Part shown: positions 9,301 to 27,864 of the stretch, piece after piece | Position numbering within the stretch: position 1 is the stretch's first letter | How the letters are laid out: each line of letters opens with the position of its first letter | IMG/VR virus record: IMGVR_UViG_3300030333_005836 | Location: 1 to 36,261 of that record | Strand: one strand, 5' to 3' | DNA: 36,261 nucleotides | DNA from: a virus | Program-made: the position numbers and the translations under genes | The notes under the pieces: model-generated | What the model was told of the DNA's origin: nothing | Seen by the model: only the letters and a program-made list of their open reading frames with translations | Database searches by the model: none

Positions 9301-9435
9301 AGCATAAGCACAACCGGTGGGACCATTGAACCCGCGACATATAGCGCCGCTTCTACGACTCATCAAGAAGACGCGTATCTTTCAAATAACTCTGATATAA
9401 TCAATGTATCAGTAGACGCTCAGGAGTTTAACTAA
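6355..9435 (+). CDS. Large tail-tip / central tail protein (hub-like)
   Basis: 1026 aa, the longest protein in the window. It follows the smaller tip genes and precedes the endolysin, the position of the central tail (J/Tal-like) protein that closes the tube and carries receptor-binding parts. Much of the sequence is Ser/Thr/Gly/Asp-rich and strand-forming. A Gly run (GGGGG) lies near residue 655. Residues ~860-920 (SYLDVGSYIKVSSPHLRGYSDD...) resemble the end of a phage hub or baseplate module. The last ~100 residues (IEVHANQFSSSGADVNFFKAGDVVQHV...) look like a separate small beta domain. Codon use matches its neighbours. The role is inferred from size and position. Confidence 0.6.
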   Translation: MSITSQHGRRVFALEVGGLEYRYHSSTPPSSSNLSSTVATSINYVDLEGIVSVGDFSAQVDPSGGVADYDAVTISLSIDRRRGGAGDPGIVFGRCGARSASTRSQISASVARSDVLISTASDLSGLTYPRLLHIGSETVRAGAASSSQVSAQRGVGNTPTQTHSIDLEGSVSPELTTTITTFRGRRAKLYMAHRYPSGAVSDYVEVINGFITESPYIEEGDTVSLSLLPLSALLDTSIADKGIGQTNLLQGYHYYDGVNGSAIEYAMSLDMQPALDTLNSIRVQVVTSSTVTANTFKISTAQLSQFTEVLSDFDPSLPTGPEGDDYPDSHPRYPALRRGGLFSVRYGQPEVYATALTYDSTIPGYLVHADSTVTDALTAGEITTAQYLFIEREKIEAKRHNLGNAEVKEWPSVINDTLTSSGPSAVTGLSGAVARWRLTPNNQIKGEKLSSSPFPVNVVFWVYVADLRNYYQTEFDAPYVPYVWTNRGTQYPIDDVGRLFYPIYTERPIQRLGVDEGGITTLRVSGSDLVGSLDVQPLPEAYYQHFESTILVENSLGLPSSAGANVYDIVVRYIDLEADEEREQIFKVTHETTASFGGSDVGVLLHIASDNEHTLNSSFGDWPDKDRALIFRGGQLTRERPGEALLRLLESGGGGGVNGTYDTLGVGLNLDSSLIDEDSFLAADAAASLPFTGNFIGDGQDLRSVFDGVLKMLGAVLVMKRSETTGKSLLTLTPIGYEKTSVVAATVEASEWIAEPPPFWGIYEDIVTQIKFSYDYSADEDKLTSEVLFNNQEAITRYGGERAKIDLQLPGVSSRQFGRGAGDTFSFFLPTSSRIFNLLSNPLREWVGEIGTGQSSYLDVGSYIKVSSPHLRGYSDDYGVTDGIGMIRGIRQSLEGEGCELSIITVGIAPVNWNSAMKIASVTNTTTIEVHANQFSSSGADVNFFKAGDVVQHVPRGNQDAAGGQLTIQSITSNTVKFTTAHSISTTGGTIEPATYSAASTTHQEDAYLSNNSDIINVSVDAQEFN

Positions 9436-10091
9436 TGCCGACTAAAGCCGAAATGGAAGAGCGCTTAGGCGCTTTAGAGAATGAGGTTAGACGCCTTAAT
9501 CGATCATTGGGTCAAGCTGAGATTGACCTGCCACAAGTGCAAAAGAGGCTCATCACTAACGCTCGACCACATCGATCAGAGCACAGCGTTGAGGCGCTCA
9601 AGCGTGCTGAGGCTGAGTGGCAGCGTGTTGTAAAAGAGCCTGACTCACGCATCGATGATTACATCAGAAGCCGTGATGGTATCGGTTGGACGTGGGAGAA
9701 GCCTTACACGCGCAACGGCCAGTTTGCTTGGTGTGGAGCGTTTGCGGCGTTTGCTTGGTCGAGTGTCCGCTTCAGCATCCGCCAAAAGATCTTCCCGAGC
9801 TGTTACCGTCTGTACTCGCGATGGCTAAACACTGCTCGACACATCGAGGCTGATCAGATGCTACCTGGTGACATCGTCGTTGTGTACACTTCAAAGCGAA
9901 GCGTCCAAGGCGATCACATCACACTCTGTCTCACAGCTCCAGACTGTGACGGCAACTTCGAGACCATCGAGGGCAACGCTCATGGTACAGCGGGCGATGG
10001 TGAGCGCGCTGAGGGTGTGGTCAAGAATGTGCGCTCTTTGGATCAGGTCGCGCACGTCTACCGCCTCTTAAGTGAGGATTTCGATGAGTGA
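9435..10091 (+). CDS. Endolysin-like CHAP/NlpC-type cysteine peptidase or amidase
   Basis: 218 aa. The first ~35 residues form a short coiled coil (MEERLGALENEVRRLNRSL). Residues ~70-215 look like a CHAP-type fold: the catalytic Cys sits in QFAWCGAFAAFAW (about residue 97), the His in VQGDHITLC, and an E-G-N-A segment follows. LPGDIVVVY is the usual strand before the catalytic His. Such enzymes cut peptidoglycan stem peptides or the glycan-peptide amide bond at the end of infection. No signal peptide is seen, so export would depend on the neighbouring holin-like protein. An alternative is a virion-associated wall hydrolase, because the gene directly follows the tail-tip genes and has a coiled-coil N-terminus. 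Confidence 0.72.
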   Translation: MPTKAEMEERLGALENEVRRLNRSLGQAEIDLPQVQKRLITNARPHRSEHSVEALKRAEAEWQRVVKEPDSRIDDYIRSRDGIGWTWEKPYTRNGQFAWCGAFAAFAWSSVRFSIRQKIFPSCYRLYSRWLNTARHIEADQMLPGDIVVVYTSKRSVQGDHITLCLTAPDCDGNFETIEGNAHGTAGDGERAEGVVKNVRSLDQVAHVYRLLSEDFDE

Positions 10092-10344
10092 CAAAGATAC
10101 TACAGTGACCGAAAAGCTTGGCGGTCGTAAGAGCTCGGCGTTCTATGCATGTCTCGCATGCATCCTCATCCTTGCCCTAATGGATAAAGCTGAGACTCAC
10201 ATCCTAGGTTTGATTGATACGTTATTCCTCGTGTATGCGGGCGCTAACGTGATGATCAAACCCAAACAGCTCGAGGCCAAAGCACAAGCCAAGGCTGATA
10301 ATTCCCCTGACCCAAAACCCACAGACTCAATGGAGAAGCCATGA
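10084..10344 (+). CDS. Holin-like small membrane protein
   Basis: 86 aa from the ATG at 10084, which has GTGAGGA upstream; an in-frame GTG at 10072 is the alternative. Two hydrophobic stretches, AFYACLACILILALM and ILGLIDTLFLVYAGANVMI, are separated by a short polar turn. A charged tail of Lys/Ala/Asp/Pro follows. Size, two TM segments, cytoplasmic polar tail and overlap with the endolysin gene fit a class II holin, which permeabilises the inner membrane at lysis. Holins have little sequence conservation, so the call rests on topology and context. Confidence 0.65.
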   Translation: MSDKDTTVTEKLGGRKSSAFYACLACILILALMDKAETHILGLIDTLFLVYAGANVMIKPKQLEAKAQAKADNSPDPKPTDSMEKP

Positions 10345-24165: not shown

Positions 24166-25296
24166 TTGTGGATCATACCCAAAAACTTACACACATCTCA
24201 CTCTGTACAGGTTACGGAGGGATTGACCTTGGACTCTCGCGAGCGCTTAGCGGAGCAGTGCGCGCCGTCGCTTATGTGGAAATCGAAGCCTTCGCCGTCG
24301 AAAACTTGGTATCGAAGATTGAAAACGAACTGCTCGAGGTGGCGCCTATTTTTACGGATCTTAAACGATTCCCTTGGCGAAAGTTTCGAGGACGAGTGGA
24401 CATCGTCTCTGGCGGCTTCCCTTGTCAACCATTTAGCAGCGCAGGCAGAGGAGTTGGAGACGAAGACTCACGTCACTTGTTTCCCTACATTCTCAACGGT
24501 CTCAGAGAGTTGGGAAGACCTCCCCTTGTTTTCCTCGAAAATGTTGAAGGGATCATCTCATCAAAGCTTAAGGGTAACGAATGGAGCGACCTTGAAAGAA
24601 CGCCTGTTTTGTTGCATGTCCTCCGTGAGTTGGAACGCGTGGGTTACAGCACAACGGCGGGAATATTCTCGGCGCGTGAAATCGGCGCGCCCCATCAACG
24701 AAGACGTGTATTCATCTTGGGTTGTCGCTCCGATCTCGGAGAGTCAGGACGCGCTTTTATTTCAGGGATGCTTGAGCGAGGTCGAGGGGGGACAAGTCAA
24801 GTCTATCCCGCCCCACGAGGTGCAACCCAACATGCATACGAACCGCCCCGTGTCACAATGGGCAACGCCAGAAGCAGGGAGCAAAGACCACATGAGCTCG
24901 AATCCGGCTTATTACATAAGCCGGATGGAGAAGGGGAAACAAATAAGCCTCAATGGGCAAGTGATACTCGACGCACAAGAACCCGCGTCACTAGCAAGGC
25001 TCAATCCGAGATGGGTAGAGACGTTGATGGGCTTACCAGTGGGATGGGTTATGCCGAGCTGTGTTATGCCATGGACAATAGGACTGATGAACTCCGCTTA
25101 CTCGGGAATGGAGCTGTGCCTGACACAGCAAAGCGAGCATTCTGTCAACTGTGGCGAGATATGGAACACTCAACCTACTATTAAAACGAAGACTCGCGTC
25201 ACATGTTTCCCTACATTCTCAACGGTCTCAGAGAGTTGGGAAGACCTCCCCTTGTTTTCCTCGAAAATGTTAACGCGACGAGATGATGACGATTAA
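24166..25296 (+). CDS. Long overlapping reading frame over the methyltransferase (possible second gene)
   Basis: The +1 frame relative to the methyltransferase is open from before 24043 to the TAA at 25294-25296. The start is unclear: TTG 24166, or ATG 24043 inside terminase. It contains LNPRWVETLMGLPVGW (25000-25047) and, upstream, YSRRVKSARPINEDVYSSW and QWATPEAGSKDH, patterns I associate with phage proteins linked to C5 methyltransferases. The same bases encode methyltransferase motifs in the other frame, so conservation in one frame could drag the other along. It runs through the downstream duplicated 86 bp. No RBS supports independent translation. Confidence 0.35.
   Translation: MWIIPKNLHTSHSVQVTEGLTLDSRERLAEQCAPSLMWKSKPSPSKTWYRRLKTNCSRWRLFLRILNDSLGESFEDEWTSSLAASLVNHLAAQAEELETKTHVTCFPTFSTVSESWEDLPLFSSKMLKGSSHQSLRVTNGATLKERLFCCMSSVSWNAWVTAQRREYSRRVKSARPINEDVYSSWVVAPISESQDALLFQGCLSEVEGGQVKSIPPHEVQPNMHTNRPVSQWATPEAGSKDHMSSNPAYYISRMEKGKQISLNGQVILDAQEPASLARLNPRWVETLMGLPVGWVMPSCVMPWTIGLMNSAYSGMELCLTQQSEHSVNCGEIWNTQPTIKTKTRVTCFPTFSTVSESWEDLPLFSSKMLTRRDDDD
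24168..25184 (+). CDS. C5-cytosine DNA methyltransferase
   Basis: 338 aa from GTG 24168, three bases after the terminase stop. All main motifs are present in order: motif I CTGYGGIDLGLSRAL (13-27, SAM binding), motif IV GFPCQPFSSAG with catalytic Cys86, motif VI FLENVEG (122-128), motif VIII QRRRVFILG (177-185), a target-recognition region (~190-300), and motif X LRLLGNGAVP (309-318). It should transfer a methyl group from SAM to C5 of cytosine in a specific site, most likely protecting phage DNA from host restriction. No endonuclease partner is visible, so it is an orphan enzyme. A second frame (+1) is open across the whole gene. An 86 bp internal piece is duplicated downstream. Confidence 0.93.
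   Translation: MDHTQKLTHISLCTGYGGIDLGLSRALSGAVRAVAYVEIEAFAVENLVSKIENELLEVAPIFTDLKRFPWRKFRGRVDIVSGGFPCQPFSSAGRGVGDEDSRHLFPYILNGLRELGRPPLVFLENVEGIISSKLKGNEWSDLERTPVLLHVLRELERVGYSTTAGIFSAREIGAPHQRRRVFILGCRSDLGESGRAFISGMLERGRGGTSQVYPAPRGATQHAYEPPRVTMGNARSREQRPHELESGLLHKPDGEGETNKPQWASDTRRTRTRVTSKAQSEMGRDVDGLTSGMGYAELCYAMDNRTDELRLLGNGAVPDTAKRAFCQLWRDMEHSTYY
24460..24545 (+). repeat. 86 bp direct repeat, copy 1 (inside methyltransferase)
   Basis: Matches 25186-25271 at 84 of 86 bases; the offset is 726 bp, a multiple of three. It encodes methyltransferase residues 98-126, from DED through the ENV of motif VI. Confidence 0.92.
25186..25271 (+). repeat. 86 bp direct repeat, copy 2 (methyltransferase fragment)
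   Basis: Starts one base after the codon following the methyltransferase TAA and encodes the same peptide in the methyltransferase frame with L to M at one position, then runs to a stop after NATR. It looks like a remnant of a second methyltransferase copy or a recombination scar. Confidence 0.9.
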
Positions 25297-26189: not shown

Positions 26190-26658
26190 ACACATCATCG
26201 CCAGACTCAAGCAAGCTCAGATTCTCAGCGAGCTCTCACCATGTCCACGTGGCAAGGTTGGCGCTGTGATCTTCGAGCCCATGAGTTGGGTCATTATTAG
26301 CGATGGATACAACGGGCCGCCGAGAGGTGGTGGTCATCTCTGCGGTGGTGACCTCTGTGAGAGAGACGTTAAGCAGATCATCAGCGGGACGATGACAGAG
26401 GTTGGATGCCATCACGCTGAGTCTAACGCGATCATTAACGCTGCTCGCCGAGGGAGCTCCACGATTGGCGCTTGGCTAGCCGTCTCGCGCACTCCCTGCC
26501 TCAACTGTGCTAAAGCTATACACCACGCAGGAATTGAGCGTGTTTATGTTATAACCGAGCAAGCGCTTGACTGCGTCGGCGCTGAATACCTCAGAGAGCA
26601 TAGCGTGGAGGTGATGAGATGGAGCGAGAAGAGGAGACATATCAAGAGCGATGTCTAG
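26173..26658 (+). CDS. Deoxycytidylate (dCMP) deaminase-like enzyme
   Basis: 161 aa from ATG 26173 (26182 also possible). Zinc-deaminase motifs: CHHAESNAI (His and catalytic Glu, H-A-E) and RTPCLNCAKAI (P-C-x-x-C), with the usual start PCPRGKVGAVIF and DGYNGPPRGG as in dCMP deaminases. It converts dCMP to dUMP, the ThyX substrate. The extra C-terminal residues (WSEKRRHIKSDV) are read in the overlap with the cyclase gene, whose perfect SD GGAGGTGA lies inside this gene. Confidence 0.88.
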   Translation: MMSMNKHIIARLKQAQILSELSPCPRGKVGAVIFEPMSWVIISDGYNGPPRGGGHLCGGDLCERDVKQIISGTMTEVGCHHAESNAIINAARRGSSTIGAWLAVSRTPCLNCAKAIHHAGIERVYVITEQALDCVGAEYLREHSVEVMRWSEKRRHIKSDV

Positions 26659-27416
26659 CCGTCGTTCTCCTCGACCTCATAGGCTCCACTCAGTTTGTCG
26701 AGCGCTTTGGAGCTTATGACGCGGCGCGGTGGTTTCAGTATCACGACCGCAGGGCAAGGACTTTGATTCAGCGCTTCAACGGTCGAGAGATAGACCGCTC
26801 TGATGGATTCCTCATCAGCTTTGAGAGGGTTATCGATGCGGTCAACTTCGGCTTATATTATCAAATGACAGTACCACAGCTCACCAAGCTTAACGCCCGA
26901 ATCGGTATTCATTGGGGGCCAGTTGTCGAGGTTCAGCAGCGTGAGCTTGATGTCGTGGCAGGGGCTAAGCCGATTGAGCTTGAAGGGATCACTAAAAACA
27001 TCGCGGCGCGCACAATGTCGATATGTATGGCGGGTCAAGTGCTGCTCACTCGTGATGCTTTTGCCCGAGTGCGATCACGCTCTAACAGCATGACGCCGAG
27101 AGATACACGCTTCTCATGTGTCGGGCTGTACAAGTTCAAGGGCGTGCGCGACTTACAAACGCTCTACGCGGTCGGCTGTGACATTAAGGTTTTACAGCCT
27201 CCACCAGGTAACGCAAAAGTAACGCGCGTTGGAGGTCCTAAGAGGATCAGGAGCAGGGCTAGACATCGCAAGTGGTTGGAGTGGGCTGAGTGGTTGCTTT
27301 ATCGTCTAGCGCTGATCAGCTTTGGCTATATCGTCGCCCACATGTACCCCTATCTGAAATACAAATTCTCACCGCTGATCAACCGATTGATGGAGATTTA
27401 TGAGCACTATAGATGA
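26619..27416 (+). CDS. Membrane-anchored class III nucleotide cyclase-like protein
   Basis: 265 aa from ATG 26619 with SD GGAGGTGA five bases upstream. Residues ~12-185 form a cyclase homology domain: VVLLDLIGST with metal-binding Asp19, NGREIDRSDGFLISFE with second Asp62, ARIGIHWGPVV (strand and turn), and ITKNIAARTMS with transition-state Asn127 and Arg131, then GQVLLT and LYKFKGVRDLQTLYAV. The Lys that usually selects purine (K-x-x-G-D) is replaced: the site reads I-D-R-S-D. Residues ~200-220 are basic and ~226-246 form a TM helix near the C-terminus. Predicted product is a cyclic nucleotide; ATP, GTP or a pyrimidine NTP cannot be told apart. The next gene overlaps it by 17 bp. Confidence 0.8.
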   Translation: MEREEETYQERCLAVVLLDLIGSTQFVERFGAYDAARWFQYHDRRARTLIQRFNGREIDRSDGFLISFERVIDAVNFGLYYQMTVPQLTKLNARIGIHWGPVVEVQQRELDVVAGAKPIELEGITKNIAARTMSICMAGQVLLTRDAFARVRSRSNSMTPRDTRFSCVGLYKFKGVRDLQTLYAVGCDIKVLQPPPGNAKVTRVGGPKRIRSRARHRKWLEWAEWLLYRLALISFGYIVAHMYPYLKYKFSPLINRLMEIYEHYR

Positions 27417-27864
27417 GGAGAAACGCACACTCAGAGGTTGGTGGTTTAGCGTTGTGTTTATGGGCTTGGTCGTTGGCTTAATCGTCTTCTTGGCTTATGT
27501 AGACATCGTCAAAGAGAACCGCGATATACTTATCGGAATCATAGGCATGCTCACCGGCTCAATCTCATCGATGCTAGCCGTGGCCTCGGGGCGTGACCCT
27601 GCCGAGGTCGAGCAACTCAGAGACGATCTCGCGACCAAAGAGGCAGACCGTCAAGCGCTCATTGCTAGACTCAGAGACGCTCACATCAACAGCCAACTCA
27701 AATCAGATATGCTCATGGAGCTCCAGACCGCAATGATTAATCAGCTCGCTGAGCTTAGAGTCATGAATCGATCAGAGGGTGATGTTTCTCTCAATAAGCA
27801 TGTGGCTGAGTGGATACCTGATACTGAACAGGATGACACTGAACAGAAGACTAGTGACACGTGA
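27400..27864 (+). CDS. Two-TM coiled-coil protein coupled to the cyclase
   Basis: 154 aa; the ATG at 27400 lies inside the cyclase gene with GGAG upstream. TM1 is WWFSVVFMGLVVGLIVFLAYV (~14-34), TM2 ILIGIIGMLTGSISSMLAVA (~43-62), followed by a coiled coil (PAEVEQLRDDLATKEADRQALIARLRDAHI, ~67-100) and a polar acidic tail. No cyclic-nucleotide-binding domain is visible. It may be a membrane effector paired with the cyclase, or an unrelated holin-like protein of the kind found near phage portal genes. Overlap and shared membrane location favour joint action, but this is inference. Confidence 0.55.
   Translation: MSTIDEEKRTLRGWWFSVVFMGLVVGLIVFLAYVDIVKENRDILIGIIGMLTGSISSMLAVASGRDPAEVEQLRDDLATKEADRQALIARLRDAHINSQLKSDMLMELQTAMINQLAELRVMNRSEGDVSLNKHVAEWIPDTEQDDTEQKTSDT

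What the first reader, a model, noticed from the sequence alone, without database searches (positions are those of the whole stretch)
26619..27864. Phage class III nucleotide cyclase with membrane anchor, coupled to a two-TM protein
The 26619-27416 product carries the catalytic core of a class III cyclase (metal Asp19 and Asp62; transition-state Asn127 and Arg131) and a C-terminal TM helix. The next gene, overlapping by 17 bp, encodes two TM helices and a coiled coil. Both lie inside the packaging/head region next to ThyX, where phages often carry extra genes. Class III cyclases are rare in phages; the relation to Pycsar (a pyrimidine cyclase plus a membrane effector) makes a superinfection-exclusion, anti-defence or host-signalling role attractive. 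The pairing and function are inferred.
Basis: partly seen in the sequence, partly recalled or inferred. Interest (0 to 1): 0.82.

Follow-up and report, generated by a model that had tools for sequence, protein, structure and literature searches.

The report
Phage cyclase with obligate membrane partner
Many uncultivated bacterial viruses carry a pair of neighbouring genes, for what looks like a working signal-making enzyme and for a small membrane protein, that are almost always found together, which suggests that these viruses run a chemical signalling device of their own during infection.

Summary
Window 26619-27416 encodes a class III nucleotide cyclase (model pLDDT 89; best solved match Rv1900c, Z 24.3 over 171 residues; catalytic residues essentially invariant in 105 distinct viral relatives). 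The next gene, 27400-27864, encodes a two-TM, long-helix protein. The two form a near-obligate pair: 79 of 80 cyclase-seeded and 80 of 80 partner-seeded IMG/VR loci (overlapping sets, the best-scoring 80 of 243 and of 305) hold both; the exception is cut at the contig end. The pair recurs in unrelated contexts, once in swapped order, in one clade on opposite strands, and in contigs up to 316 kb. Bacterial relatives (14 loci) have no partner and lack the catalytic Asn. Searches with two cyclases and two partners found no member in 50,697 GenBank phages. It is not Pycsar by the features tested: no cNMP-binding domain in 18 viral records, no aromatic base-pocket residue, PycC models match few members and weakly. 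Best reading: a membrane-bound cyclic-nucleotide module of virulent phages in which cyclase and two-TM protein act together. Substrate, direction of control and biological role are inferred. Other phage cyclases have been reported (pelagiphage curli clusters).

The parts
26619..27416 (+). Class III nucleotide cyclase gene, 265 aa
   Evidence: Pfam Guanylate_cyc 1.9e-4, just under its cut-off (20 of 30 relatives at E<=1e-3); NCBIfam TIGR04510 1.5e-43, N-terminal part only; Rv1900c Z 24.3; dN/dS 0.059-0.069 against four near relatives
26673..26675 (+). Codon of metal-binding Asp19
   Evidence: 94 of 94 aligned viral cyclases
26793..26795 (+). Codon of Asp59, aligned with the purine-specifying Lys position of Ma1120 (up to the one-residue gap)
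   Evidence: 104 of 104 aligned viral cyclases; alignment
26802..26804 (+). Codon of metal-binding Asp62
   Evidence: 104 of 104 aligned viral cyclases
26997..27011 (+). Codons 127-131 with transition-state Asn127 and Arg131
   Evidence: N 104 of 105, R 105 of 105; N is P or A in 16 of 16 bacterial rows
27273..27410 (+). C-terminal helix 219-264, probable membrane anchor
   Evidence: Model; hydropathy weak in the window protein, clear in 123 of 147 viral cyclases
27400..27864 (+). Two-TM, long-helix partner protein, 154 aa
   Evidence: Paired with a cyclase in 80 of 80 partner-seeded loci; dN/dS 0.030-0.099 against four near relatives; TM2 the most conserved segment

Best explanation
A two-gene, membrane-bound cyclic-nucleotide module of virulent tailed phages. 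A class III cyclase, tethered by a C-terminal helix, makes a cyclic mononucleotide from an NTP during infection. The partner, two tightly conserved membrane helices followed by a cytoplasmic helix, is the cyclase's dedicated partner: most likely the output, a membrane-active protein gated by the cyclase or its product, which changes membrane permeability or blocks a competitor's entry. Shown by computation: cyclase fold, intact active site, purifying selection, near-obligate pairing. Inferred: enzymatic activity, substrate, physical contact, direction of control, role.
For: Pairing from both directions, 79 of 80 and 80 of 80 (overlapping sets). Genes overlap in 92 of 102 distinct same-strand pairs. 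Pair kept over context changes: at least 2 forced by well-supported branches, 4-5 by parsimony, one reversed-order and three opposite-strand distinct pairs. Cyclase and partner distances correlate better with each other (r 0.85) than with the portal (0.77 and 0.62; n=74). Catalytic residues invariant and dN/dS low. TM2 is the most conserved partner segment (mean entropy 0.40; TM1 0.86; tail 2.04). No tyrosine integrase in 18 viral records, and the bacterial genome scan returned no phage-type pair, which fits a virulent lifestyle.
Against: No nucleotide-binding domain is recognisable in the partner, unlike the nucleotide-gated effectors described, so it may instead regulate the cyclase. In one clade the cyclase has changed around the active site (WIDSSDGH and the like) while the partner stayed alike, so the partner may have a job of its own. 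In three distinct same-strand loci the two genes lie 1.2-1.4 kb apart, not adjacent. At least one close phage, L210, lacks the pair around its portal (16 kb fragment). The window cyclase's membrane segment is weak. TM2 shows no conserved single face (permutation p 0.78), so a pore face is not shown.
Confidence: 0.45

Rival explanations
1. The partner is the input: a membrane sensor or scaffold whose helix dimerises and switches the cyclase, and the product acts on a host receptor such as a CRP-like protein.
For: No cNMP-binding domain in 18 viral records; partner lacks a recognisable binding domain; its helix 67-99 is very conserved (entropy 0.58). Class III cyclases regulated through coiled coils next to the catalytic domain are known (recalled).
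Against: A host receptor would have to be shared by hosts of very different phages (inference); the partner's TM2 is more conserved than its helix.
Confidence: 0.3
2. Lysis timing: the partner is a holin-like membrane protein and the cyclase sets the clock.
For: Two-TM hairpin; weak similarity to PHROG 9990, function unknown (17 of 24 members, best 2.2e-5), and to a TM protein beside a peptidase gene in a Vibrio phage (tblastn E 0.9; gene table; 14.6 bits in a 49-ORF search). One of 30 cyclases weakly matches a holin PHROG (0.0087).
Against: The window has an endolysin-like gene and a small TM gene together at 9435-10344, 16 kb away; in L116 an endolysin-like gene lies about 5 kb away on the other strand.
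Confidence: 0.15
3. Decoy or anti-defence: the product competes for, or overloads, host nucleotide-signalling defences, or a Panoptes-like guard logic acts against rival phages.
For: Two-gene layout of synthase and 2TM protein resembles Panoptes as described in PMC12657218 (passages).
Against: OptS is a Cas10-like polymerase and OptE has a beta-barrel sensor; ours are a class III cyclase and a protein predicted all-helical at low confidence. A decoy needs no fixed membrane partner (inference).
Confidence: 0.1

Closest known systems
Cyclase domain of NCBIfam TIGR04510 (putative peptide modification system cyclase) and related bacterial proteins
   Same: Closest sequence family found: 1.5e-43; shared EIDRSDGF (by selection of the scan), K117, E120, K126 and PP..K motif
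   Different: Bacterial proteins are several times longer, have P or A for N127 (16 of 16 rows) and no partner in 14 loci
Pycsar (PycC cyclase with PycTM or PycTIR)
   Same: Two-gene layout of class III cyclase and membrane protein
   Different: No cNMP-binding domain; Leu, not aromatic, two residues before the first metal Asp in nearly all members; PycC profiles match at most 4 of 30 members, best 3.9e-5, and not the window protein
Panoptes (OptS and OptE) and other 2TM effectors
   Same: Nucleotide-making enzyme next to a two-TM protein
   Different: Other synthase fold; OptE has a beta-barrel domain, this partner is predicted all-helical
SLATT two-TM effector domains
   Same: TM-TM-helix layout; SLATT_fungal is the Pfam family that most members touch (21 of 24 at E<=1, best 3.4e-5)
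   Different: Window protein 16.5 bits against a cut-off of 26.5; profile comparison with bacterial SLATT sets 0.2-27.7% (ten shuffled controls 0.3-2.8%)
Adenylate cyclase in curli (T8SS) clusters of uncultivated pelagiphages (PMC9599517, passages)
   Same: Cyclase in uncultivated phages
   Different: There it follows curli genes; no CsgG in our 18 viral records. The sequences were not compared
Rv1900c and Ma1120 mycobacterial cyclase domains
   Same: Fold, best Z 22-24; two metal Asp
   Different: Asp59 at the Lys position and one residue fewer before the second metal Asp

Membership tests
Class III nucleotidyl cyclase | Cyclase homology domain fold | tested here: met
   Z 24.3, rmsd 1.7, 171 aligned to 1ybt_B
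Class III nucleotidyl cyclase | Two metal Asp, transition-state Asn and Arg | tested here: met
   Counts
Class III nucleotidyl cyclase | Cyclase activity as a dimer | not testable with these tools
   Monomer model only
Canonical class III adenylate cyclase | Purine-specifying Lys | tested here: not met
   Asp59 in 104 of 104 (position, next to a one-residue gap)
Pycsar | Match to PycC models | tested here: inconclusive
   Window none at E<=1; three PycC models match 4, 3 and 1 of 30 members, best 3.9e-5
Pycsar | Aromatic base-pocket residue two before the first metal Asp (EaPycC F100, AnPycC F60) | tested here: not met
   Leu in 91, Phe in 2, Ile in 1 of 94 aligned; Leu in the window
Pycsar | Effector with cyclic-nucleotide-binding domain | tested here: not met
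   0 of 18 viral records; 10 of 14 control genomes ring; records may be fragments
TIGR04510 | Whole-protein curated score | tested here: not met
   149.4 against 400 bits; profile positions 7-204 of 814
SLATT effectors | Pfam gathering score of SLATT_fungal | tested here: not met
   16.5 against 26.5 bits, window protein
SLATT effectors | Profile homology to bacterial SLATT | tested here: inconclusive
   0.2, 0.3 and 27.7% on sets of 2-5 sequences
Panoptes | mCpol synthase and S-2TM-beta effector | tested here: not met
   Class III cyclase fold; no beta strand in the low-confidence partner model
Phage holin | Place beside the endolysin gene | tested here: not met
   Endolysin-like gene at 9435-10091, pair at 26619-27864

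The most novel reading that the evidence does not exclude
A dedicated second-messenger system carried by virulent phages: a phage-made cyclic nucleotide, possibly not cAMP, and a new family of two-TM membrane proteins that together control the infected cell's membrane or its access to rival phages, kept from small tailed phages to contigs of about 300 kb.
Probability: 0.35. Interest if true: 0.9.

Novelty: new variant of a known kind. Interest (0 to 1): 0.74.

Why it matters
Nucleotide second messengers in phage biology are mostly known as weapons of bacteria that phages degrade or soak up. A widespread phage gene pair that makes such a signal and couples it to a membrane protein would turn this round, and would give a function to a conserved gene pair that the GenBank phage collection, PHROGs and PADLOC as searched here do not describe. 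It is directly testable: two short genes, one enzymatic assay, one membrane assay.

Tried and rejected
SLATT homology of the partner: suggestive in Pfam, not borne out by profile comparison. Foldseek of the partner model: 0 matches in PDB, but the model is poor. BFVD matches of the cyclase at E<=0.001 (9 rows) are viral proteins at 7-18% identity, several named as cyclases; not followed. The one GenBank phage hit to the window cyclase, MT838110 (27% identity), is an 'UNVERIFIED' faecal scaffold whose match lies in a large frame, with no partner in the 6.5 kb read. Plasmid hits (13 records, best 33%) are rhizobial, at low identity. Weak Erwinia and Vibrio phage hits to the partner (E 0.8 and 0.9) were judged chance or generic TM similarity. 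Partner in 398 genomes of the phylum of a Rubrivivax: none; the set has no positive control, but the same search rings in a viral record. Integrase, cNMP-binding and CsgG searches: 0 of 18 viral records each; Terminase_6N in 3 of 18. A one-sided conserved face in TM2: not found (p 0.78); TM1 p 0.02. A scan with one divergent cyclase returned two contigs, both already seen. Literature: nothing on this pair in ten searches; no bioRxiv library is held, and only listings or passages were seen.

Limits of the counts: each scan kept only the best 80 loci where more were found, the seeded sets share contigs, contigs are not species, and ORF starts were called by a simple script.

Full report
What is there. 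The two ORFs are as described. The first is a class III cyclase: below the Pfam cut-off by a hair in the window protein (21.6 against 21.9 bits), but 20 of 30 viral relatives match at E<=1e-3, the profile of 30 matches the Rv1900c cyclase domain at 1.3e-14, and the predicted structure (pLDDT 89.4) superposes on Rv1900c with Z 24.3, rmsd 1.7 over 171 residues. Against four near relatives dN/dS is 0.059-0.069 for the cyclase and 0.030-0.099 for the partner (for more distant ones dS is near or beyond saturation). An active enzyme is therefore likely, though not shown.

Membrane parts. The partner has two clear hydrophobic segments; TM2 is its most conserved part (G46, G49, T52, G53, S57, M58 in 105 of 105). 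The cyclase's C-terminal anchor is weak by hydropathy in the window protein and clear in 123 of 147 viral cyclases.

The pair. Scanning IMG/VR with the cyclase alignment gave 243 stretches with a relative, 80 kept; 79 of 80 hold the partner, the exception being cut at the contig end just after the cyclase. Scanning with the partner alignment gave 305, 80 kept; 80 of 80 hold a cyclase, three of them only a fragment at the contig edge and one split over two frames. The first scan gave 11 of 11. The sets share contigs and hold the nearest relatives only. Of 105 distinct pairs, 101 are cyclase then partner, 1 partner then cyclase, 3 on opposite strands about 1-1.4 kb apart; of the 102 same-strand pairs 92 overlap, 7 are within 50 bp and 3 are 1.2-1.4 kb apart.

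Context. In the window's own group the pair lies between ThyX or dCMP deaminase and the portal. Of 80 portal-seeded loci (best of 447), 70 hold the pair, 4 show the partner cut off from its upstream side by a contig edge, 4 have too little sequence upstream, and 2 show neither: L191 with 585 bp upstream, and L210, whose 16 kb record has no pair. So the pair is close to a core feature of this group, with at least one local absence. Other loci have other neighbours, including contigs of 296 and 316 kb. That these are phages rests on IMG/VR; in L162 (helicase) and L116 (PurZ-like and endolysin-like genes) gene content agrees, while the two L008 and L010 proteins tested matched no PHROG. In a quick tree of 57 viral and 12 bacterial domains the bacterial rows are one side of a branch (SH-aLRT 100) and the portal context changes 4-5 times, at least 2 forced by starred branches; the tree carries long-branch warnings.

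Relatives elsewhere. A scan of the 84,980-species genome collection with two peptide patterns gave 14 bacterial loci, 33-41% identical, in Rubrivivax, Xanthomonadaceae and kin. None has the partner. By selection they share EIDRSDGF; beyond it they share K117, E120, K126 and R131, but N127 is P in 13 and A in 3 of 16 rows. The best named family is TIGR04510. Divergent pairs without the patterns would be missed. In GenBank phages, tblastn with two cyclases and two partners found no member (the tool says that records very near the window may be left out).

Substrate. The residue aligned with the purine-specifying Lys is D59, with a one-residue gap beside it. This argues against ordinary ATP recognition; guanylate cyclases carry an acidic residue there (recalled), and BcPycC uses Y50, D94 and R97 (passages of PMC11224242). 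The aromatic residue of PycC is absent in all but 2 of 94 aligned members. The substrate is open.

How it may work. The cyclase-effector and 2TM systems seen gate a membrane protein through a binding domain; this partner has none that I can recognise, and none of 18 viral records carries a cNMP-binding domain. Either the partner is gated by direct contact or by a new kind of site, or it regulates the cyclase. I favour the first slightly, because TM2 is its most constrained part, and hold the second as the main rival. The lack of integrase in 18 records and of phage-type pairs in the bacterial scan points to virulent phages, so a lysogen-protecting role is less likely than one within a single infection.

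What is known. Phage cyclases as such are not without precedent: adenylate cyclases are reported in curli clusters of pelagiphages (PMC9599517, passages); our 18 records have no CsgG. A 2026 review of jumbo phages contains no word beginning with 'cyclase' (PMC13282480, term search and passages). The pair, and the partner family, were not found described in ten literature searches of an open-access library (listed under tried and rejected).

Noticed in passing
L089-L102: Bacterial relatives carry P or A in place of the catalytic Asn in 16 of 16 rows; in several the cyclase domain is followed by a GxGGTGKTR-like ATPase motif, in others by a hydrophobic segment.
   Followed up: partly
L111, L115-L118, L120, L124, L155: A clade of the pair in which EIDRSDGF has become forms such as WIDSSDGH or LSDSSDGF and E120 is N or S, while the partner stays alike: perhaps a change of substrate.
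   Followed up: partly
L116:1252-2364: A 2-aminoadenylosuccinate synthetase-like (PurZ) gene about 5 kb from the pair in a 162 kb contig: possibly a Z-genome phage.
   Followed up: no
L210: Close portal relative with ThyX before the terminase and no pair in its 16 kb record.
   Followed up: yes
L164:4020-4801: Cyclase split over two frames next to an intact partner: sequencing error or decay.
   Followed up: no
window:9435-10344: Endolysin-like gene followed by a small TM-protein gene: likely lysis cassette.
   Followed up: partly
window:24043-25296: ORF with a weak DNA-methyltransferase PHROG match (9.2e-8) overlapping another long frame at 24168-25184 (338 aa).
   Followed up: no
window:989-9435: Large proteins (827, 399, 359 and 1026 aa) without Pfam or PHROG match at E<=0.01.
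   Followed up: no
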